A DNA stretch of 64,000 bases from positions 2,978,019-3,042,018 of the forward strand of contig BCKC01000007.1 of NCBI GenBank assembly GCA_001600455.1, given 5' to 3'. The notes under the pieces are model-generated. The model saw only the letters and a list, made by a program, of their open reading frames with translations, did no database searches and had not been told where the DNA came from. The DNA comes from Endocalyx cinctus (Eukaryota; Ascomycota; Sordariomycetes; Amphisphaeriales; Apiosporaceae). Each line of letters starts with the position of its first letter. The stretch's first letter is position 1. Positions 1-11,960 of this stretch are shown here, piece after piece. The translations under genes were made by a program, and so were the position numbers.

Positions 1-784
1 TGGCGTTATGCCACTGGATTCGAAGCTGGTACTTGGGACCGATGCTGTCGCCCGTGGGATAACGGACATAACCGTTGGATAATGATGATGAGGAGGAGGG
101 GTAGTAGTCGGCATGAGCCGCTTGTGACGAGTTTGAGGAAGAAGATGTATCGGAATAGTTGCCGGACCGGAGGAAAGCCACGATGAAGATGAGAATAACG
201 AGTAACGAGACGCCGCGGAGAAGTCTTCCAGGGAGAGAAGAGTAAGGGCGATGCCGTAACGAAGACGATGATTCTAAGTCCGAGAGATTATTCACATCTG
301 AAAATCTTCCAAACACCGATCGAAGAGACCTATGCCTTGTTGGAAATTCTTCGCTGCGAGGGTCATTTGTATCCACGCGCTCCAGGCAGTCTGCGATGGC
401 TGGCTTAAGAAGGTTGACCACCAACAAATAAGATCTTTTAGACTCGCTTTCTATAAATGAAAGCATAAGTGGCTTTGGGTTTTCGTTGTTTGAAGACTCG
501 AGATGAAACTGCAAGGCCTCGGCAGCGTCTTCAAGATCCACGGCATCACATTTAGATATTCTAGAAACCCATACCAGCGCCGTCGTGGAGCTATTGTCGA
601 TACTCTCTATACGCAGAAGAGCAGTTCTTGTTTCTGTATTATTGGGGGAATCTACTGTATGTCTGAGAAAAGAGAACACGCTCTGCGATGCTCCGTATGG
701 CATCTGCGGCGTGCACCAGAGAATGGTGAGTATCGGCTTCTCGCCTTCAAAGGGGGAGTTTTCATGTCTCATCGTCATTTTCAT
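1..784 (-). CDS. Unknown single-pass membrane protein, C-terminus beyond the window
   Basis: An uninterrupted reading frame runs on the minus strand from ATG at 784 to the window edge, about 261 codons with no stop. The start begins MKMTMRHENS; two further in-frame ATGs lie within the first five codons, so the exact start is uncertain. About 190 soluble residues come first, then a hydrophobic segment (SLLVILIFIVAFL, around residue 200), then a Ser/Asn-rich stretch with possible N-glycosylation sites (NYS, NSS). This suggests a type II or tail-region membrane protein with a glycosylated far side. I do not recognise the family. No intron is needed in the visible part. Confidence 0.55.
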   Translation of the reverse strand, partial: MKMTMRHENSPFEGEKPILTILWCTPQMPYGASQSVFSFLRHTVDSPNNTETRTALLRIESIDNSSTTALVWVSRISKCDAVDLEDAAEALQFHLESSNNENPKPLMLSFIESESKRSYLLVVNLLKPAIADCLERVDTNDPRSEEFPTRHRSLRSVFGRFSDVNNLSDLESSSSLRHRPYSSLPGRLLRGVSLLVILIFIVAFLRSGNYSDTSSSSNSSQAAHADYYPSSSSSLSNGYVRYPTGDSIGPKYQLRIQWHNA

Positions 785-1549: not shown

Positions 1550-1861
1550 ATGAAGTCTGTTGCGATTCTCCTACTACTCACAGTTTGTGGCCATGTCCTG
1601 GCATCCCCTTATCCTTCAAAACGAGATGTAAGTGTAAGGCCGACATCTACATTTCACTGGGAAACGCGATTCACTGACCTGAATGTTTTCCTTCAGTTGA
1701 AGAAAGCCACTTTTCCGGTCGGGAACTGGGCTGATGAGCACAAATGGGAGACGGAAGATATTCCGGTAGAACATGATATATCAATAGCAAAGTGGTTTGA
1801 TCAAATCGATGTTCCGGAGCCTTGGGAGAAGGGGGAAATGATGGATCACGGTCACCACTGA
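1550..1861 (+). CDS. Small secreted protein with Kex2-like site
   Basis: ATG at 1550 opens a signal peptide (MKSVAILLLLTVCGHVLA) followed by SPYPSKR, a likely Kex2 dibasic site after a short pro-segment. The frame stays open without splicing, but 1628-1696 is a clean 69-nt intron: GTAAGT donor, CTGAC branch site, TTCAG acceptor. Spliced, the product is about 80 aa and acidic, ending in a His-rich tail (MMDHGHH). The longer in-frame start at 1490 would put the hydrophobic segment internally and is rejected. The family is unknown. Size, secretion and Kex2 site are those of small secreted or effector-like proteins; that role is inference. Confidence 0.6.
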   Translation: MKSVAILLLLTVCGHVLASPYPSKRDVSVRPTSTFHWETRFTDLNVFLQLKKATFPVGNWADEHKWETEDIPVEHDISIAKWFDQIDVPEPWEKGEMMDHGHH

Positions 1862-2261: not shown

Positions 2262-3855
2262 TCACTCATCCTCTTGGAACGTCTGCATAAGATGTCCGCG
2301 CTCCTCTCCGGCCAACTGCTGTTTAGAAGGCGATTCTTCAAACTCTTGTTTTCTACGCATCAGTTCGGGCACGACAATTAAGAAAACGATTGCCTCGATG
2401 GCAGCTAGAATGCCCCATATCAGTTTCGCTGGTGCATGCTCCTTCGCAAATATAATTCCACTATTAAACGTTCACTGTTAGTTAATAGGCCTATTCCCGG
2501 TCATACCCGGAGCGCTTGTACTCACAATGCAGTATTCACAATGCCTAGGACAAGCAACAGTCGTCCATTCCATCGGTGGAGAAACGTAGGCACAGTTTTT
2601 CTTTGTAGCTTGACGAAATTTTTGTGGTGCCACCAACCGAGCCAGATTTGGGTACCGACTAGTACCATAAGAATGATACCGAAAAATGGATGGCCTTGTA
2701 AGAGTTGATCAAACTAGATATTCCATGTTAATCCCGGCGTACTCTAATAAAAAAAAAAGCATAACACTTGAATACTCACTCCGCCATTCCTCACAATGGG
2801 CCAGGCAATCAAACCCACGCCACCAAATGCGCTTAAAGTAGCCGTCACCTGGAGGGCAACGTGGGCCTTGAACGCCTTGGCGTAGCCGGTGCTGAATACG
2901 ACAGCCCCGGCCGGGAAAAACACCATGAATGCCAGCATAAGCAAAAGACCGTGGGCCCTCGCCGCGGTAAATCCAGGATCCGTGTCAGAGACTGAGTCGC
3001 CTGGGGCACCAAAGTCCGAAGTGCCAAACGAACCCTTACTTCTATCTAGTGCCGGTGCACCAGAAGCGTCCCCCGAAGCTGGCGCGCTTGAAGTCATGTC
3101 GGCCCAGAATAAACCTGTTTATTCCGTTAATGGAACTTGCGTTTCCGATTGGATCGTATGAGTGATAAAGAATTAAAAAAAAACCAAGTACTTACTGTAA
3201 TGATCGTGCTGCTGAATGCGAGCATCTACGGTGGCAACATCAAATTTCTGTTTTAACCCGCGCGCCCAAATCAAAGGATGACTTTTCTCGTTGGGATTAA
3301 ATGTGGCCCATTGGTCGCATGAGTAGCAGACCATGGAATACTCCTGCCAAGTATCGGTTTGGGAGTTGATCGATAAGATTTCAGCGACCGGTGTCTTGTC
3401 GGCAGCAAGTTGAGGTTGGAAGTGGCCGCTAGTTGATGAGGTCAGTTATTTAACTCTTCGGCAAAGTCAAACAACTCCGTTGTGAGAAATTTATGACTTA
3501 CGTTGTGGTGCGCACACTAACAACGACATCTGTGAACAGCACGAGTTAGAAGCATACTATCCAATATAAAAGCGACGACTCGCTTACCTTTTTGTTTGTC
3601 GGCAAACATGAGAAACATTAGGGAGCCAGCCATCTGTTCACCGATTCCCATGGCGAACCATCCAGTGGTAGAGGTTCCTTCAAACCCCAATGTCATGTAC
3701 AAATCTGTTCCGCTGCTAGTGTCATTTTTCGCAGTCACTATTCCGACGCACATGTTCACAAGCTCATCCTTGTGGCAGTACTGTATTGCAGCATTTGCCG
3801 AAGTACAGAAAAGGGCCAGCCAGAGAAGGCGGAGAACAGAGTGGAAGGAAGCCAT
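2262..3855 (-). CDS. Secreted DOMON domain plus cytochrome b561 membrane protein
   Basis: Six exons: 3855-3588, 3529-3502, 3428-3196, 3114-2780, 2713-2526 and 2460-2262. They join in phase to about 416 aa, all with GT-AG introns. The N-terminus is a signal peptide (MASFHSVLRLLWLALFCTSANA). A DOMON-type domain follows (TGWFAMGIGEQMAGSLMFL, residues about 20-170), then a Ser/Pro/Ala-rich linker, then a multi-helix cytochrome b561 domain. Histidines at RAHG, KAHV, QGHP and LHRW are at the usual spacing for two b hemes. Known members pass electrons across the plasma membrane or reduce extracellular metals and oxidases; the substrate here cannot be read. C-terminus is cytosolic and charged (FQEDE). 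The 28-nt second exon is notably small. Confidence 0.85.
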
Positions 3856-5229: not shown

Positions 5230-5949
5230 TCAAGCCTTTAAATCCCCCTCTTCAATCGGCTGTCTACACCATCCAAAGCCACCTCCAGAGGGTACTCGAG
5301 CGTAGATCTCGCCAACAGTGCTCCAATCCGTGGCCAGGAGCACGCTAGTACAGTGAGCGGTATGATGGTACTCTCCAGCCCAGATATTGGTCGCGATACG
5401 CCCCTCCATCGACTTATGCAGGCGTTTCCACCAGAGGATGCAATGGCCGGCATGGAACTCTTGCGTCGTCCAGATGTCCTTGCCGGCCATCTCGGACATC
5501 TCCTCGATCGTATCGATGTGCTGAGTGCCTTCCTTGTCGCGGAAGAAAGGCCAAGGGCGAACGCGCTGATCTGAGCGCAGCCAGTCTTCGAACTCCTTGG
5601 CCGTCGTCTGATCTTGACAAGCCGCCGGCCACCACGTCGCCGACAGGAGATCGTACGAGCATCCCAGAGCCCGTGCCTCGGCCGTCGTGTTTCCGCACTG
5701 AGACGAGTCCACAAATGGTCCTCGAGCCGCGGCAGAGGAGCCTGACGAGTGCTGCCCGGACGATAAGGGGGACCCGGTGGATGAGCCGACGCCTAGTCCC
5801 ACGACGAAGGTGAGAGTGGCCGCGAGACCGGCGAGTAGGACGGAGCGTAAGTGAGACTTGGGTCGGGGGCGGTAGTGATGGGACGAGTCGATGCTACTCG
5901 CGCCATCTTCACTACTGCGTAGCTTTTCGTAAGATGGAGGATTGTCCAT
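5230..5949 (-). CDS. Single-pass membrane protein with two HxxHC motifs (UstY-like oxidase candidate)
   Basis: Intronless, 239 aa. A cytosolic N-terminus is followed by one membrane segment (residues about 36-56) and a lumenal domain. That domain carries the signature CGNTTAEARALGCSYD (85-100), then W-P-x-x-C, then HAGHC (166-170) and HTAHC (196-200). Paired HxxHC motifs are the hallmark of UstYa-family (DUF3328) copper-dependent oxidases that crosslink fungal RiPP cores. This protein belongs to a divergent, widespread fungal family with the CG-EA-GC-FD signature; its chemistry is not established as far as I know. It is a paralogue of the protein at 11277-11960. It is divergently arranged from the repeat precursor, sharing the 5950-6855 spacer, which suggests co-regulation. 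Assignment to the cluster is inference. Confidence 0.75.
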   Translation of the reverse strand: MDNPPSYEKLRSSEDGASSIDSSHHYRPRPKSHLRSVLLAGLAATLTFVVGLGVGSSTGSPLSSGQHSSGSSAAARGPFVDSSQCGNTTAEARALGCSYDLLSATWWPAACQDQTTAKEFEDWLRSDQRVRPWPFFRDKEGTQHIDTIEEMSEMAGKDIWTTQEFHAGHCILWWKRLHKSMEGRIATNIWAGEYHHTAHCTSVLLATDWSTVGEIYARVPSGGGFGWCRQPIEEGDLKA

Positions 5950-6855
5950 GATTGAGAAGATGGTTGGGTGCTTTTTTTTTCACCAAGTAGAGTAGTGGTC
6001 AACTTAGAGATAGATTGAAAGAGAAAAGAGGTATGAAAAGAATTCAAAGAAGTAAAGCTTCAAATGAGAGAATCAGTCGAAAAAGAGAGAGAGGGAAGTA
6101 AGCCTCTGAAGCTCATCTAGACTTTTCGGCCTCAAGGTATCAAAAATGATGTGCTCGGGCCTAGAATGAGTCGTCAGCTTTCTTGAGCCGGGAGGTGGTA
6201 TTAACATGAAAAGAGACCCCCGAGGCACTTAATTATGTCCCAGGAAAAACTTTTCTTCACATGATACAATGGAATCTTTGTCATCTAGTTCTTTATTTAT
6301 TTATTCTACATTAATAATAGTATGCAAGGGTGTTGTCCCCTGCTAGGTTGTCGATTCGTGATGAAGAACTAGGATTCGAAAAAAAGGAGCGGTCATGCGG
6401 GGCCACCCTGATTCGTATCATGCCCGCGCAAATTCGACCTCCCAATAACTCTATATCAAACTCATTCATATTTTAGGTTACATTGACGATGCCAAGGAGT
6501 TATATTCGCAAAATATTCCCTCCACTATTAAGGAATCCTAGCATTCAGCTTCTTAGTAATAGTGTGCAACACCAAGAATGATTTTGTATTGCATTTGAAC
6601 ACGCCCTTTTTGTCAACGCTACCTAAACTCATAATTCGCTCCACATCGGCTTATTGTACTATCTAGTGGTTGAATGATGAAGCTCATATCTGCCATATAT
6701 AAGTTACAATACTTTCCCGCCGACAGACAGTTTTAGAAAATCTTGGAATTATCAAATCACAGAATTTCATACTCCTTTCACTAGCCTCGACAACGTCCTC
6801 GTTTACATAACTTCTTCTTAACTTACATCTCACGTTGCTAAACAAAAGAGTCAAA
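5950..6855. promoter_or_regulatory. Divergent promoter region between HxxHC gene and repeat precursor
   Basis: A 906-nt spacer between two divergently transcribed genes. A TATA-like CATATATAAG lies at about 6694-6703, roughly 155 nt upstream of the precursor start. A CT/GA-rich stretch lies just upstream of the 5949 start. No clear palindromic activator site was recognised by eye. Confidence 0.4.
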
Positions 6856-7235
6856 ATGAAGACCTCCGTCGTTCTGTCCTTCGCCTCCCTTATTGTGGCT
6901 GCCTTTGCTGCCCCGGCTCTCAGCCCTGGTGAGATTCTAAAATCACATTTCCTCCAATAATATATATTGACATCCCCGTAGCCGAACTCGAAGCACGTCA
7001 ATACCAGCTGGTCGTAACTGAACACGGAGCAGAGGAACCTGAACCAGAAGTGTCAAAGCGCCAGTATCAGCTAGTTGTCTCCCAGCATGGAGCAGAAGAG
7101 CCCGAGCCTGAGGTCTCCAAGAGACAGTACCAGCTCGTCGTTACTGAGCACGGAGCGGAGGAGCCCGAACCTGAGGTCTCGAAGCGCCAGTATCAGCTAG
7201 TTGTTTCTCAGCACGGAGAGGAGGAGGAGTCGTAG
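6856..7235 (+). CDS. Secreted repeat precursor peptide, dikaritin-like RiPP precursor candidate
   Basis: Exons 6856-6928 and 6982-7235 (53-nt intron, GTGAG to CGTAG) encode 108 aa. Residues 1-19 form a signal peptide ending in AFAA. After a short leader ending LEAR come three complete 21-residue repeats (31-51, 52-72, 73-93) and a shortened fourth (94-108). Each begins QYQLVV and each complete one ends SKR, a Kex2 site. The repeats alternate strictly: TEHG in 1 and 3, SQHG in 2 and 4, showing duplication of a two-repeat block. A glutamate/proline-rich spacer fills the rest of each unit. Kex2-cut repeats with a tyrosine near the core start are known from ustiloxin, phomopsin and asperipin precursors. 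Neighbouring HxxHC proteins support a post-translationally modified peptide. The true core and its modification cannot be read from sequence. Confidence 0.8.
6999..7235 (+). repeat. Four tandem 63-nt coding repeats (last one truncated)
   Basis: Units at 6999-7061, 7062-7124, 7125-7187 and 7188-7235 inside the precursor gene. Protein-level identity is higher than DNA-level identity: many synonymous differences separate the copies, as expected for selection on the peptide. Units 2 and 4 share more DNA sequence with each other than with 1 and 3. Confidence 0.9.
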
Positions 7236-8969
7236 GCTAAGGGCAAACAAGCATTTCACTGTGTACTGTAACTACTTTATTTGCACGACAATTCCAGAAT
7301 TCAGGAGGACTAGATTTTGTTGATTAGTTCAAAATTCACGACATTATTTTTCTCCCCACATCGATCCTTGGTGTTCTGTACTTTGTGTTTAAATTGATGC
7401 GCGTATGAAAATGAATTTTCTTCATCTCGTTGCTCAATGCAGTATGTATTTTGAAAGCTAGTTTATAAATCCCCATTGGATAAACTCTGTTAGTTCAAGG
7501 ACTACTTACTCAGAAAATTTGCTATCTCAGCATGACGATGATCTGGAAAGGGTTTAATTTAGAGTCACTTAATTGAAGACTACATGTATAACTAGTTCCT
7601 AGCTTTAAGAAATTTAAAAATTTAAATTTTTTTCATTGAGTCAAGACCCTTGACGGCAAAACTTCCTCTGCCTCATATGCTAGATGGTTTCATTTAGCCA
7701 GGGCTTGTTAAAATAAAATACCTTAAAAATATCGTATTTATTATGCCATTCCCGCCTTTACTATTTCTGGGGCTTAGGCTTTTTTGCGGGCCGGCAAGTA
7801 TACTTTCTACTTTAGTTATCACGTATTACAACCTATCGGCAATACCCTTTATGTTTACCGGTATCCGTAGATTACCGGTGGAGTATCGGTCTATGGAGGG
7901 GTTTCAGACTCCATTTCCTTGGCGCATAATATAATTTGATAATGATGAACAGAACAGAACACCCTGAGCTCCGGTCCCCTGTGTTATGGTTGCAGGCCAA
8001 AAAAATTGCCACTGACTATCTACTATATGTAATGTAAGTTGGATGTGTATGGTAAGCCTTAACTAGATAAGACAAATTTAGGTATAGTATCTACCAAGAC
8101 CTCAACAGTTTTACTCCATACAGTATTTATCTACTCCTATAATCCCTGTAGATGGATTGATGGGTCTCGGCCTTATCTTTGCTCATATAATTTTATGGGG
8201 TGGTTACACAAAAATATACATCAACGAGTGTACGTATAGCCTTTTTAGCATGGGTCCCTGAACGTAGGTAAGCATTTTATTAAGTTTAAATGTAGAGCTT
8301 AATACAAGTGTATAGCTGACCGGGGGCCGAGAAAGCTCCTATTCCGTCCTGGTCACATTTTCCGCGTTTGGTTGTAATTACCAACGCCCTAGCGTTTGTT
8401 GCCAAAAATAGAAACAACCCACTATTACAGACTCCTCCTCCATGGCGCCGGGAAGAGGACGACAAGGGATGATCTACACTACACTATTAACTCCGTCTGA
8501 CCAACGACACCAGATTGAGTTCCATCCACCAAGCTGACTGACCAAGCAAGGGACGCGTTCCACAATTATTGTGATAGCCTTTATAATCACCATCTCGCGG
8601 TTTTCCCCTTGTGGCTTCTAAATAATATCTTGGCTTCCCTTTCGTGCTAATTTCAAAAGTGCCGTCACTTGGCGGGCCGCTGACTAACTAACAGAATTCG
8701 TTATGGATGGCGTATCCAAAAAAAAAAAAAAAAAAATTAGAACAGCCTATACACAGTATAGGTTGCAATACATACTTCCTTGCCTAATGATTTTCCTTCG
8801 AGGTATAGCCTATCTGCCGTTCAACGCCCCGTTGGTGCTCTCGATCGCTTACCATTTTTTTTCTATCATTCACCGGATTCTGTTTGCCATCATTATTAAA
8901 CTTAGAGCATTCTGACTCCCTGGACACCACAGGCACGAACTGCATGCGAATTTCACCATATTGTTCACT
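7236..8969. other. AT-rich spacer within the putative RiPP locus
   Basis: No gene seen. The stretch is strongly AT-rich with TAG/TAT words and scattered stops in all frames. An A-homopolymer of about 18 nt sits near 8719-8736. The short frames at 7743-7934 and 8703-8915 have no recognisable domain and are not called. It separates the precursor from the UstYa-type gene. Confidence 0.45.
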
Positions 8970-10092
8970 ATGTCAGGATATCTCCCAGAAAAACCGCTCG
9001 CCGACGACTATGAAGACGACGGGTCCTCTGTCGAGATAGGTCTGCTAGAGGCAAAAGTTGGCGAAAAGTACGCCGACTCCTCTAGGTCTAGCCGAAGCAA
9101 GAAGTCGTGGCTCGTACCAGTCCTATTTCATGGCGGTCTCATTATCATCTACACATCACTGTTTTTCTTTGCCCTATGGAGCCTAAAGAAAGATTCTAAG
9201 TATCGGCGGCCAGATATCATTGATTGTAAGCTATATTAAGAAATATTACTGGTTTAAGTTACCGTTAGGCTTAACTAACTTGGCGTAGCATCCGCGACGT
9301 CGGCGATCGAGTACGGAACTCGTGCTTTCGACGAGATCGACGAATTGGACAATTACTTTGGGAAACCAACTCCTGAGTTGGACGCGAGATGGAAGGAGCT
9401 TCTTAAGAGTATATTCCCCCCTCCTTGCGTGTTTACACTTAGCAGGATTACGTGGTTTGCTAAACTACTTGCAGATCAATGGCTTCAGCTTCCCGAGTCC
9501 GATATGCGGAAATTAGGGCGAGTTGAAGAGGGAGTCAAACTGCCTGGAGGTGGTTATTTCGGAACTTTGTCTGTATTTCACGATCTTCATTGTCTGGTAA
9601 GAAAACTCCTCCCTACCAGCAAATGGGCAACTTTCGCACCCGTTATACATGGAATTCTAACTGGATTCAGCGCCGCATTCACCACGCATTTTACAGAGAT
9701 CACTATTTCCCTAATTTAACCGCCGACGAAATCGAGCTAGATATTCGCCATGCAGGTAAGACATTCTTTTCTCTAACTCATGCAATAAGATGAATTTTTC
9801 ACCCCTGATGACTAATGCGTCCCAATAAATAGGTCACTGTCTCGATAGTCTACGACAGTCTATTCAGTGCGCAGGGGATGTCTCACTGCTGACAATGCGA
9901 TGGGGAGTACACACCAAGGTACCACTTGGTAATTTTACAAGCCGTCACGAATGTGTCAACTGGGATCTTATTCAAGACTGGGCGCAGGATCACGTCTACG
10001 ATGTAATGGCGCCAGGTGTCCTGGTGCATCCAACACTAGGACCGTCATATCCCGACGGAGACCCGGGATTGGGGGTTGGGAGAGAGGACTAA
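8970..10092 (+). CDS. UstYa-like (DUF3328) membrane oxidase of the RiPP-type locus
   Basis: Five exons: 8970-9225, 9289-9408, 9475-9596, 9671-9755 and 9833-10092. They join in phase to 280 aa, the usual length of UstYa-family proteins. The start is ATG 8970 (MSGYLPEKP); the frame upstream only offers TTG. A charged cytosolic N-terminus is followed by a membrane helix (SWLVPVLFHGGLIIIYTSLF, about 47-70). The lumenal domain has GGGYFGTLSVFHDLHCL with HDLHC at 161-165, then RDHYFPN, then HAGHCLDSLRQSIQC with HAGHC at 193-197, all standard DUF3328 features. Known relatives (UstYa/UstYb in ustiloxin, homologues in phomopsin and asperipin) oxidatively cyclise Kex2-released peptides. It lies 1.7 kb downstream of the repeat precursor on the same strand, so a role in modifying that peptide is the simplest inference. 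Confidence 0.88.
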
Positions 10093-11276
10093 GATGTGAT
10101 ACATAGCTTACACTAGTTCGATCAATTTCCGTAGCATTTTCGGCGTTGTAGAGCAAGAATTCGCATGTATTAGTCATATTTTACTCTATATGTTTAATTT
10201 AACACAGTCAATTCAACTTCGGAACACCGGAAATAGTTCGCAATGAATGTATATTCGAGATTAGTCGGTGTCAGAGCAACTCGAGGGTTCAGATGGCGCA
10301 ATAAGACTCCCATTATTTGACATTGTGAGTCCTTGCATTGAGAACAGTGCCGTGATAAAATTCGAAATGGAGTCCACTAGTATCCTTGGACTGAAATCAA
10401 ATGATTCCGTTCTCACTCTTTGGGCAGGGCCTAGACCAACGACGAGTGCCATGTGATATATCACGCATTGAATAACACCTCCAACTGAATAACGATATGG
10501 CTAGCACATCCTCAAATTGATGCTAAGCAGGATCCTAAAGTCAAAGACCCTTGCATATAGTCCGCTAAGTAGGGCTACATCTTACTCATCCTATGAGGAT
10601 GACTCACCCTGCTCTTCGTCATAGATAAATGACCTTCCCTTCTTACGCCTTCCCCAGGATCCACCGTTAATAGTTAGATTAGTTTGTCTCTGGTTCCTCT
10701 TAAGCACGGAATGCGGATTTTCTAGTCTAGCGTACGGCAGGGGTTCTCAGCTCGCAGGGGTCGTGGGCCGACAAGCCGGCAGGCGGGGCCCCGTTATTTA
10801 GTTTCTTCATAAAAAGGAATATACCGTCTACGCTATATTCCCAGTAGGAAGATAACTTATCCGTTTCATATTTTCCACTTTTTTTTTTGCCATGCCATAT
10901 CCTCATGTGTTCACTCAGATCTGTACCGGGTATCTATCTACGGTTTGTTCTAAGAGGTTACCCTTGAAAATTGATATGAAAACGGAAAAATGACCGTAAT
11001 AAAGTTTTCTTTTCTGGGGTCCAAAAATGATTAACATGCATTGCTCAGCATGTCGTACGATCTCGACTTTACAGTCAAGTTCCTTTCGCTATCTTACTGC
11101 ATGACCATAGTTTTCCGTATCATTCAGGTCCTACCTAGGGAGACGTGAAAATTCATGGTATACGTTCAAAGCTCATTTTCTTTCATCTCCTGGTAGTAGC
11201 AATCTTCTGTACAATCATATCACACTCATACACTCCACAAATTTTAGTATTGATCATCAGTCACTACTGACCCATC
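10093..11276. other. Spacer between two HxxHC-protein genes
   Basis: No gene seen. A short GC-rich patch at about 10735-10795 stands out from AT-rich surroundings. The short frame at 10261-10464 shows no domain. The 11277 gene's promoter must lie in the last few hundred bases. Confidence 0.4.
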
Positions 11277-11960
11277 ATGCATTTCTTCGGTTCTCTAAAA
11301 ATCCCCCAAATCCAGTACCATAGAATTCGACAATCAGACGAAAAGTACGTTATCGATGATCCGAACCATCTACCAACGAGAACGCCGTCAAACCGCCGAG
11401 CATACCTCACCAATGTCTTTCTTTCCGCCACGATAGTCACGCTAGTGGTCACCCTCGCGGTCGTAGCTGTATCCTACGTGCGACTACTACACGAGCACGC
11501 GCCCCGGCCGCTCCTCACGTGCGGAACATCGATAGCCGAAGCACGGGAAGCTGGTTGTTCGTTCGACCGGCTGACCAAGGCCTGGCTGCCGGCGCAGTGT
11601 CCGCGGTATTACGAAGAGGAATTCGTGCAGTTCCCGGCCGAGAAGCTGAACCGCACGAGCTGGCAGTACTGGGAGGACCTGTCGGGCACCAAGGAGGTGT
11701 CGGACGACGAGATGGCGCTCTTCGCCGAATCGAGGCCGCCACACGAGACTTCCTGGGTCTCCACTACCCGAATGCACCTGGCCCACTGCGCCTTCGTCTT
11801 GATGAGGCGGGCTGATTCGGGAGGTGGGAGGATGGATGCCACGACCGAAGATGTTCCCCATGCGAAGCACTGCTTGAAGATGTTGCTGAAAGCCGCTATG
11901 AAATCGCCGGGGATAGATACGCCATGGGCTGAGGGAGAGGTAGGATTCGGAGCTTGTTAG
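11277..11960 (+). CDS. Single-pass membrane protein with two HxxHC motifs, paralogue of the 5230 gene
   Basis: Intronless, 227 aa. One membrane helix (about 43-68) follows a 42-residue N-terminus. The lumenal part has TCGTSIAEAREAGCSFD (81-97), W-L-P-A-x-C, then HLAHC (167-171) and HAKHC (195-199). The same signature and spacing appear in the 5949-5230 protein, so the two are paralogues, although identity outside the motifs is low. Paired HxxHC motifs relate them functionally to the DUF3328 protein between them. A good candidate third enzyme of the putative peptide pathway; what it acts on is unknown. It is the last gene of the compact group 5.2-12 kb. Confidence 0.72.
   Translation: MHFFGSLKIPQIQYHRIRQSDEKYVIDDPNHLPTRTPSNRRAYLTNVFLSATIVTLVVTLAVVAVSYVRLLHEHAPRPLLTCGTSIAEAREAGCSFDRLTKAWLPAQCPRYYEEEFVQFPAEKLNRTSWQYWEDLSGTKEVSDDEMALFAESRPPHETSWVSTTRMHLAHCAFVLMRRADSGGGRMDATTEDVPHAKHCLKMLLKAAMKSPGIDTPWAEGEVGFGAC

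What the first reader, a model, noticed from the sequence alone, without database searches (positions are those of the whole stretch)
5230..11960. Candidate dikaritin-like RiPP cluster: repeat precursor with three HxxHC membrane proteins
Seen: a secreted precursor with four QYQLVV-type repeats, the first three each closed by a KR site, lies between three single-pass membrane proteins, each with exactly two HxxHC motifs; one is a clear DUF3328/UstYa protein. Known: ustiloxin, phomopsin, asperipin and related fungal RiPPs are made from Kex2-cut repeat precursors by UstYa-family oxidases. Inferred: these four genes make a modified (probably Tyr-crosslinked) peptide based on a QYQLVV-containing core, unlike the core sequences I know from this class. 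No tyrosinase, methyltransferase or dedicated peptidase was found nearby, so the pathway may be minimal.
Basis: partly seen in the sequence, partly recalled or inferred. Interest (0 to 1): 0.92.

Follow-up and report, generated by a model that had tools for sequence, protein, structure and literature searches.

The report
Fungal RiPP cluster, possible electron donor
A fungus carries a compact gene cluster that very probably makes an oxidatively modified small peptide from a repeated precursor, using copper-type HxxHC enzymes, and a membrane electron-carrier gene lying among those enzyme genes is a candidate for the still unidentified partner that powers this enzyme class.

Summary
The precursor (6856-7235, one intron) carries four QYQLVV repeats, three closed by KR, between three single-pass proteins with two HxxHC motifs each: A (5230-5949), B (8970-10092), C (11277-11960). 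Only B is clearly UstYa/DUF3328 (E=6e-53). A and C are related to each other but divergent; C hits UstYa below the cut-off, A not at all. A fourth HxxHC gene (D) crosses the window's left edge. A-B-C is co-located in other fungi (shared contig lengths, near-consecutive gene numbers, two gene models fusing B to C). The repeats differ mostly synonymously, so the peptide is under selection. Best reading: a KEP/UstYa (dikaritin-type) RiPP cluster with a new core; product and cross-link are inferred. Unexpected: a DOMON-cytochrome b561 gene (2262-3855) lies between D and A. The DUF3328 enzyme CctR needs Cu(I), and its authors postulate an unknown electron-delivery partner; this gene is a candidate. 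That b561 gene is the only one found so placed in this genome, and the pairing could not be tested in other species. No homologue of the precursor was found elsewhere.

The parts
6856..7235 (+). Precursor gene (108 aa): N-terminal hydrophobic secretion signal, four QYQLVV[TE/SQ]HG repeats, three KR sites; intron 6929-6981
   Evidence: only one significant match in the genome, itself; no homologue among 3543 candidates in the protein collection
5230..5949 (-). Gene A: 239 aa, single pass, HAGHC and HTAHC; divergent HxxHC subfamily, no Pfam match
   Evidence: (10 homologues); divergently oriented to the precursor with a 906-bp gap
8970..10092 (+). Gene B: UstYa/DUF3328 protein, 280 aa, HDLHC and HAGHC; exons 8970-9225, 9289-9408, 9475-9596, 9671-9755, 9833-10092
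   Evidence: PF11807 E=6e-53; splice model; homologues
11277..11960 (+). Gene C: 227 aa, single pass, HLAHC and HAKHC; same divergent subfamily as A
   Evidence: PF11807 E=2.6e-4, 21.4 bits, below the 25-bit cut-off; A vs C profiles 98.3%
1..784 (-). Gene D: window part of a fourth HxxHC protein (407 aa from the ATG at 784; the gene runs about 440 bases beyond the window's left edge); one TM segment, HDAHC and HIKHC 30 residues apart (both motifs lie outside the window)
   Evidence: no significant Pfam match; hhalign to the gene C profile 89.9% over the HxxHC region
2262..3855 (-). DOMON-cytochrome b561 (CYBDOM) gene, 416 aa, six exons: candidate trans-membrane electron donor
   Evidence: PF16010 E=2.5e-19 and PF03188 E=1.4e-5, both over cut-off (on a copy with one letter mistyped); splice model; hydrophobic segments and histidines; nearest paralogue exons 29-37% identical
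1550..1861 (+). Small secreted protein, 80 aa, one KR after the signal region; membership in the cluster uncertain
   Evidence: splice model (intron 1628-1696); no Pfam match for the unspliced reading

Best explanation
This is a fungal RiPP gene cluster of the KEP/UstYa (dikaritin) kind. Shown: a secreted-type precursor with four near-identical units separated by KR, adjacent to a canonical UstYa gene and to three further HxxHC proteins, with A, B and C co-located in other genomes. Inferred: the precursor enters the ER and Golgi; Kex2 cuts after KR, and trimming of K and R (general knowledge, recalled) leaves QYQLVV[TE/SQ]HGAEEPEPEVS, whose N-terminal Gln may close to pyroglutamate. The lumenal HxxHC domains form binuclear copper centres like CctR, use O2 and electrons, and so cross-link the Tyr, most likely to a Leu/Val side chain in QYQLVV. 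The acidic AEEPEPEVS tail would act as a removable recognition sequence. B would be the cyclase; A and C would be partner or second-step oxidases. Less certain: the DOMON-b561 protein passes electrons from the cytosol to reduce the lumenal copper.
For: Precursor structure and selection on the repeats; UstYa identity of B. Co-location elsewhere, for the 7 named organisms among the 10 hits: A shares a contig length (hence very probably a contig) with B and/or C in 5. These are Xylariaceae AK1471 (A 477309, B 477306, C 477303), Nemania FL0916 (A, B, C), Lasiodiplodia mahajangana (A g3269, C g3272, leaving two genes between, as here), Stachybotrys elegans (A; B+C) and Xylariaceae FL1272 (A, B). 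An unnamed pair, P0023 (B type) and P0040 (C type), also shares a contig length. Two gene models fuse B to C, which shows adjacency there (P0011, P0012). In this genome the A/C family lies within 15 kb of a PF11807 match at 4 of 6 loci (binomial p about 3e-6; 3 of 5 without this locus, p about 9e-5). One of those loci has its own repeat precursor (IYYQKYI), UstYa matches and a tyrosinase. Literature: 1758 of 7878 KEP genes have DUF3328 neighbours; 65.6% of the repeat sequences of those have Tyr against 38.2% of the rest (PMC7329392); HxxHC(x)nHxxHC is a binuclear copper site needing O2 and electrons in CctR (PMC12435403).
Against: No homologue of the precursor at E<=10 among 3543 candidates, although gene A has 46-81% identical homologues; so it is not shown that the other A-B-C loci carry the same or any precursor. 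Co-location is not universal: Nemania serpens has A, B-type and C-type proteins with three different contig lengths (and different strain prefixes), Hypoxylon argillaceum has A but no B or C in the list, and Xylariaceae FL1651 has a 70% identical B and a C-type protein with different contig lengths and no A hit. A profile comparison finds no relation of A (2.4%) and little of C (9.5%) to UstYa. The AlphaFold model of A is poor (pLDDT 45.5), that of B's orthologue P0013 middling (60.9), with no PDB match at E<=0.001. Expression and product are unknown. The promoter comparison was inconclusive. No tyrosinase was found in the cluster; no peptidase or transporter was recognised there, but the transporter search scored only 9 of 579 candidates and no peptidase search was run.
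Confidence: 0.8

Rival explanations
1. The precursor releases linear, unmodified Kex2 peptides (a signalling peptide or effector), and the HxxHC genes act on something else.
For: Most KEP genes (6120 of 7878) have no DUF3328 neighbour (PMC7329392); no precursor homologue was found although A-B-C is conserved.
Against: Precursor and A share a divergent 906-bp gap and B is the next recognised gene; a second cluster in the genome repeats the combination; every repeat carries Tyr. The mating-pheromone form is not met: no XA/XP dipeptides follow the KR sites (sequence).
Confidence: 0.12
2. The HxxHC proteins modify a non-ribosomal or other metabolite, as CctR does in the cyclochlorotine pathway.
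For: DUF3328 proteins also serve non-ribosomal pathways (PMC12435403); an SDR lies about 1.3-2.0 kb left of the window.
Against: No synthase or synthetase was recognised among the ORFs read in the 30 kb upstream (95 aa or more) or in the window (160 aa or more) (by eye; not a domain scan).
Confidence: 0.05
3. The DOMON-b561 gene is an unrelated neighbour, for example a plasma-membrane metal reductase.
For: Of the other b561-type loci found (C3:3259475, C7:1854026, C1:7623442, C4:3218651; weaker C3:4886093 and C2:4830740) none lies within 20 kb of a PF11807 match (coordinates compared). No such gene was noticed among the ORFs of 110 aa or more in three other HxxHC clusters (small exons would be missed).
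Against: It lies between two HxxHC genes, about 1.4 kb from gene A. With about five to seven b561-type loci in 44.8 Mb a chance placement here is about 0.2-0.3% (my arithmetic, post hoc, and a lower bound: the PF03188 search missed this very gene, so the count is incomplete). A CDH-cyt (PF16010) match without a b561 match lies about 18 kb from UstYa matches at C2:5557033, a weak hint of another association.
Confidence: 0.65

Closest known systems
Asperipin-2a cluster (Aspergillus flavus; AprY)
   Same: KEP precursor plus UstYa oxidase without a tyrosinase, and Tyr-based cross-links (passages in PMC12048977; PMC9233826; AprY as copper- and O2-dependent cyclase, PMC12435403)
   Different: One UstYa gene plus a reductase and a transporter there; here four HxxHC genes, three of them outside PF11807, a different core and a DOMON-b561 neighbour
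Ustiloxin B and phomopsin clusters
   Same: Multi-core Kex2 precursor, several UstYa-type genes, Tyr-x-Ile-type core (YAIG, YVIP; PMC7329392) comparable to Tyr-Gln-Leu-Val-Val
   Different: Both need a tyrosinase; none here from 30 kb left of the window to its right end
Epichloecyclins (gigA) and victorin
   Same: Repeat precursor with side-chain cross-link (PMC9233826)
   Different: Other core sequences; victorin links Phe to Leu and is chlorinated
CctR, cyclochlorotine hydroxylase
   Same: Single-pass lumenal HxxHC(x)nHxxHC protein; binuclear copper, O2, needs electrons (PMC12435403)
   Different: Acts on a non-ribosomal peptide; its electron source is unknown
CYBDOM proteins (e.g. Arabidopsis HYP1) and chromaffin-granule cytochrome b561
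   Same: DOMON plus b561 moving electrons across a membrane; HYP1 reduces ferric and cupric substrates (PMC10784544); chromaffin b561 is thought to regenerate the ascorbate used by the hydroxylase DBH (PMC10691727)
   Different: No paper of the library holds b561 together with DUF3328, and the one with b561 and UstYa is unrelated by its title (listings)

Membership tests
KEP (Kex2-processed repeat protein) | Secretion signal | tested here: inconclusive
   Hydrophobic segment around residues 4-22; no signal-peptide program was available
KEP (Kex2-processed repeat protein) | At least 3 tandem repeats of at least 8 aa between Kex2 sites (criterion in PMC7329392) | tested here: met
   Four units, three KR sites
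Dikaritin (KEP-derived RiPP cyclised by UstYa homologues) | UstYa/DUF3328 gene beside the precursor | tested here: met
   Gene B, PF11807 E=6e-53, next recognised gene downstream
Dikaritin (KEP-derived RiPP cyclised by UstYa homologues) | Two HxxHC motifs in the oxidase | tested here: met
   A, B, C and D
Dikaritin (KEP-derived RiPP cyclised by UstYa homologues) | Cross-linked (cyclised) mature peptide | not testable with these tools
   Needs mass spectrometry
Dikaritin (KEP-derived RiPP cyclised by UstYa homologues) | Tyrosinase (present in ustiloxin and phomopsin, absent in asperipin-2a; not defining) | tested here: not met
   None on C7 2.948-3.042 Mb
UstYa/DUF3328 (PF11807), gene A | Score over the Pfam cut-off | tested here: not met
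   No match; 2.4% in profile comparison
UstYa/DUF3328 (PF11807), gene C | Score over the Pfam cut-off | tested here: not met
   21.4 bits against 25, residues 35-208 aligned to 2-178 of 220; two paralogues score 17.3 and 14.5, a third none
UstYa/DUF3328 (PF11807), gene D | Score over the Pfam cut-off | tested here: not met
   No UstYa match; related to gene C over the HxxHC region
Alpha-type pheromone precursor | XA/XP dipeptides after the Kex2 site (PMC7329392) | tested here: not met
   Units begin QYQLVV directly after KR
CYBDOM (DOMON-b561) | DOMON/CDH-cyt plus cytochrome b561 domain in one protein | tested here: met
   PF16010 70.1 bits (cut-off 27), PF03188 25.8 bits (cut-off 23); the DOMON model PF03351 itself only 14 bits (cut-off 32.7)
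CYBDOM (DOMON-b561) | Met/His haem ligands of the DOMON domain | tested here: inconclusive
   No solved structure matched by sequence; candidate residues only by eye

The most novel reading that the evidence does not exclude
The cluster encodes its own redox partner: a Golgi-type DOMON-cytochrome b561 carries cytosolic electrons across the membrane to keep the binuclear copper of four co-clustered HxxHC oxidases reduced. That would be the missing 'P450-reductase-like' partner of the DUF3328 family. Within this set, canonical UstYa (B) and the divergent HxxHC proteins (A, C, D) would work as mixed dimers on the peptide.
Probability: 0.25. Interest if true: 0.8.

Novelty: new variant of a known kind. 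Interest (0 to 1): 0.52.

Why it matters
Thousands of KEP precursors are predicted, but a 2022 review counts only five reported dikaritins (passage in PMC10512285), so a clean cluster with a new core is a useful target. Two points go further. First, a divergent HxxHC group that Pfam's UstYa model does not pick up travels with UstYa genes, so searches based on PF11807 would undercount these enzymes. Second, the electron source of DUF3328 copper enzymes is an open question stated in PMC12435403, and the DOMON-b561 gene lying between HxxHC genes D and A gives one concrete, deletable candidate.

Tried and rejected
Mating pheromone: rejected, no XA/XP dipeptides after KR. Precursor homologues: phmmer over the protein collection, 3543 candidates, none at E<=10; by the tool's description only proteins of about 60-190 aa that share exact 5-mers are seen, so longer or unannotated precursors would be missed. 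In the own genome only the window copy; the two weak hits (E 0.22 and 7.1) were dropped. Structure route: model of A pLDDT 45.5, model of P0013 (B's orthologue, not B itself) 60.9; Foldseek of the latter against PDB gave 52 matches at E<=10, none at E<=0.001; not used, beyond noting that both HxxHC motifs fall in predicted helices in both models. PDB by sequence: B has one chance-level hit (E 0.024), the DOMON part none. Shared promoter words: a 10-mer was found in 4 of 7 promoter windows and in none of 60 shuffles, but those windows overlap in pairs (A with precursor, D with the small secreted gene) so the same sites count twice; other word lengths were reached by some shuffles; inconclusive. 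Transporter search: uninformative, 9 of 579 candidates scored. General b561-UstYa association: not supported in this genome, apart from one CDH-cyt match 18 kb away. Dropped as non-significant from the A/C family count: C1:2362071 (E 0.78) and C3:3208945 (E 0.17). Literature: 'QYQLVV' occurs in one unrelated peptide-synthesis paper of the library (listing only); b561 with DUF3328 in 0 papers, b561 with UstYa in 1 unrelated paper (listings only). Papers: PMC12435403 whole main text (no supplement); PMC7329392 abstract, sections 3, 7 and 13 and passages; PMC12048977, PMC8403587, PMC10691727, PMC10784544, PMC9233826, PMC10512285 passages only; all others listing only.
Full report
WHAT IS THERE. 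The window lies at G000:C7:2978019-3042018 of a 44.76-Mb genome in 15 contigs; it is fungal by its introns and homologues. The precursor reads MKTSVVLSFASLIVAAFAAPALSPAELEAR followed by four QYQLVV units, three ending in KR. The units alternate TEHG and SQHG. Summed over the six pairs of units there are 51 synonymous and 10 non-synonymous differences (pS 0.79, pN 0.047; pairs are not independent): the DNA has drifted while the peptide, QYQLVV and HG above all, has been kept. Two or more HxxHC motifs arise in at most 1 of 20,000 shuffled versions of A, B or C.

THE ENZYMES. B is a textbook UstYa/DUF3328 protein (PF11807, E=6e-53). A has no Pfam match; C scores 21.4 bits against a 25-bit cut-off. 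A and C are clearly related to each other (hhalign 98.3%) through a shared CG-x(4)-EAR-x(2)-GC-x-[YF]-D-x-L-x(3)-W-x-P-A-x-C block (read from the sequences) and the two HxxHC motifs, but not detectably (A, 2.4%) or barely (C, 9.5%) to the UstYa profile built from B and its relatives. I therefore treat A and C as a divergent HxxHC group, linked to UstYa only through C. A fourth HxxHC protein, D, crosses the left edge of the window; its HDAHC and HIKHC lie outside the window, 30 residues apart, and its HxxHC region matches the gene C profile at 89.9%.

CO-LOCATION IN OTHER FUNGI. Gene A has 10 homologues at E<=0.001 in the protein collection, 7 from named organisms. A profile of B plus C found 39 proteins at E<=1e-10. 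In 5 of the 7 named organisms A shares a contig length with B and/or C: Xylariaceae AK1471 (gene numbers 477309, 477306, 477303), Nemania FL0916 (all three), L. mahajangana (g3269 and g3272, so two genes between A and C, as here with the precursor and B), S. elegans and Xylariaceae FL1272. In the other two the link is not seen: N. serpens has A, B-type and C-type proteins with three different contig lengths and strain prefixes, and H. argillaceum has A alone. Xylariaceae FL1651, which has no A hit, has a B orthologue (70% identical to the window's B) and a C-type protein with different contig lengths. Contig lengths are a proxy, since the records themselves could not be opened. Two gene models, in Nemania FL0031 and S. 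elegans, run straight from a B half into a C half with four HxxHC motifs, which shows B-C adjacency there. No precursor homologue turned up.

THE SAME COMBINATION ELSEWHERE IN THIS GENOME. The A/C family has members at six loci; four lie within 15 kb of a PF11807 match (binomial p about 3e-6; 3 of 5 and p about 9e-5 without this locus). One of them, C2:5.578-5.588 Mb, has a repeat precursor with six IYYQKYI units, an HxxHC protein of the A/C group, UstYa matches and a tyrosinase. So divergent HxxHC proteins sit with repeat precursors at least twice here.

HOW IT PROBABLY WORKS. Shown: anatomy, selection on the repeats, co-location. From established work: the DUF3328 protein CctR is a membrane-anchored, dimeric, binuclear-copper, O2-dependent enzyme whose HxxHC(x)nHxxHC residues are essential (PMC12435403); DUF3328 proteins are described as indispensable for cyclising the cores of ustiloxins, asperipin-2a and phomopsins (PMC7329392). 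Inferred: Kex2 frees the units, trimming removes K and R, and B with A, C and perhaps D oxidises the unit, most likely joining Tyr-2 to Leu-4, Val-5 or Val-6; His-9, equally conserved, is a possible second partner. Which residues are joined, and whether the acidic tail is removed, cannot be told from sequence.

AN UNEXPECTED NEIGHBOUR. Between D and A lies a DOMON-cytochrome b561 gene (2262-3855, six exons; PF16010 70.1 bits, PF03188 25.8 bits); a small secreted protein gene (1550-1861) lies between it and D. The CctR authors show that Cu(I) is essential, that ascorbate, NADH or NADPH boosts activity, and suggest an unknown accessory protein for electron or Cu(I) delivery in the lumen. The CYBDOM protein HYP1 moves electrons from cytosolic ascorbate across a membrane and can reduce cupric substrates (PMC10784544), and chromaffin-granule b561 is thought to serve the hydroxylase DBH in this way (PMC10691727). 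The topology fits. I put this at about one in four.

WHAT IS KNOWN. KEP genes with DUF3328 neighbours are common (1758 of 7878 KEPs in 1461 strains), clusters without tyrosinase are known (asperipin-2a), and ustiloxin-like RiPP clusters have been reported in Hypoxylaceae (PMC8403587). The cluster is thus a new variant of a known kind. What I did not find in the papers searched is the QYQLVV core or a b561 partner; most subscription papers are not in that library.

LIMITS. No expression, no mass data, no named organism, weak structure models, splice models by eye, and a post hoc chance estimate for the b561 gene.

Noticed in passing
L056:4223-4636 (+), G000:C2:5582223-5582636: A second repeat precursor, six AEEAVKEPDTIYYQKYI-KR type units, with UstYa matches, an A/C-type HxxHC protein and a tyrosinase within 10 kb: a more classical dikaritin-type cluster in the same genome.
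   Followed up: partly
L016:503-727 (+), G000:C6:30092-30316: A third repeat precursor (five SEIDVADAF-KR type units, no Tyr) beside two UstYa matches.
   Followed up: partly
L053:3860-5008 (-) and 5427-6380 (+), G000:C8:2.554-2.556 Mb: MurB-like (MurB_C E=1e-13) and MurA/EPSP-synthase-like (E=2.9e-32) genes, typical of bacterial cell-wall synthesis (recalled), in a fungal genome between a UstYa gene and a gene C paralogue; possibly acquired from bacteria.
   Followed up: partly
window 1550-1861 (+): Small secreted protein of 80 aa with one KR after its signal region and a His-rich end (HGHH), between gene D and the DOMON-b561 gene; could be a single-core precursor, an effector or unrelated.
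   Followed up: no
P0005/P0012 (Stachybotrys elegans) against window genes A, B and C: Gene A is 86% identical (over 194 aa) to the S. elegans copy but 79% to the Xylariaceae AK1471 copy, while B is closer to AK1471 (73% against 70%) and C is 68% (over 139 aa) against 65%; S. elegans belongs to another order as I recall, so lateral transfer is possible.
   Followed up: no
P0003 and P0029 (labelled Lasiodiplodia mahajangana): These proteins look like Nemania/Xylariaceae proteins, so the organism label of that assembly may be wrong.
   Followed up: no
G000:C10:1888658-1889392 and G000:C15:4060-4794: Tyrosinase matches with identical score and stop pattern at the end of C10 and near the start of C15 suggest that the two contigs overlap or share a duplicated end.
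   Followed up: no
G000:C2:5557033-5557683: A CDH-cyt (PF16010) match about 18 kb from the UstYa matches of the IYYQKYI cluster; whether it is an electron-transfer neighbour was not examined.
   Followed up: no
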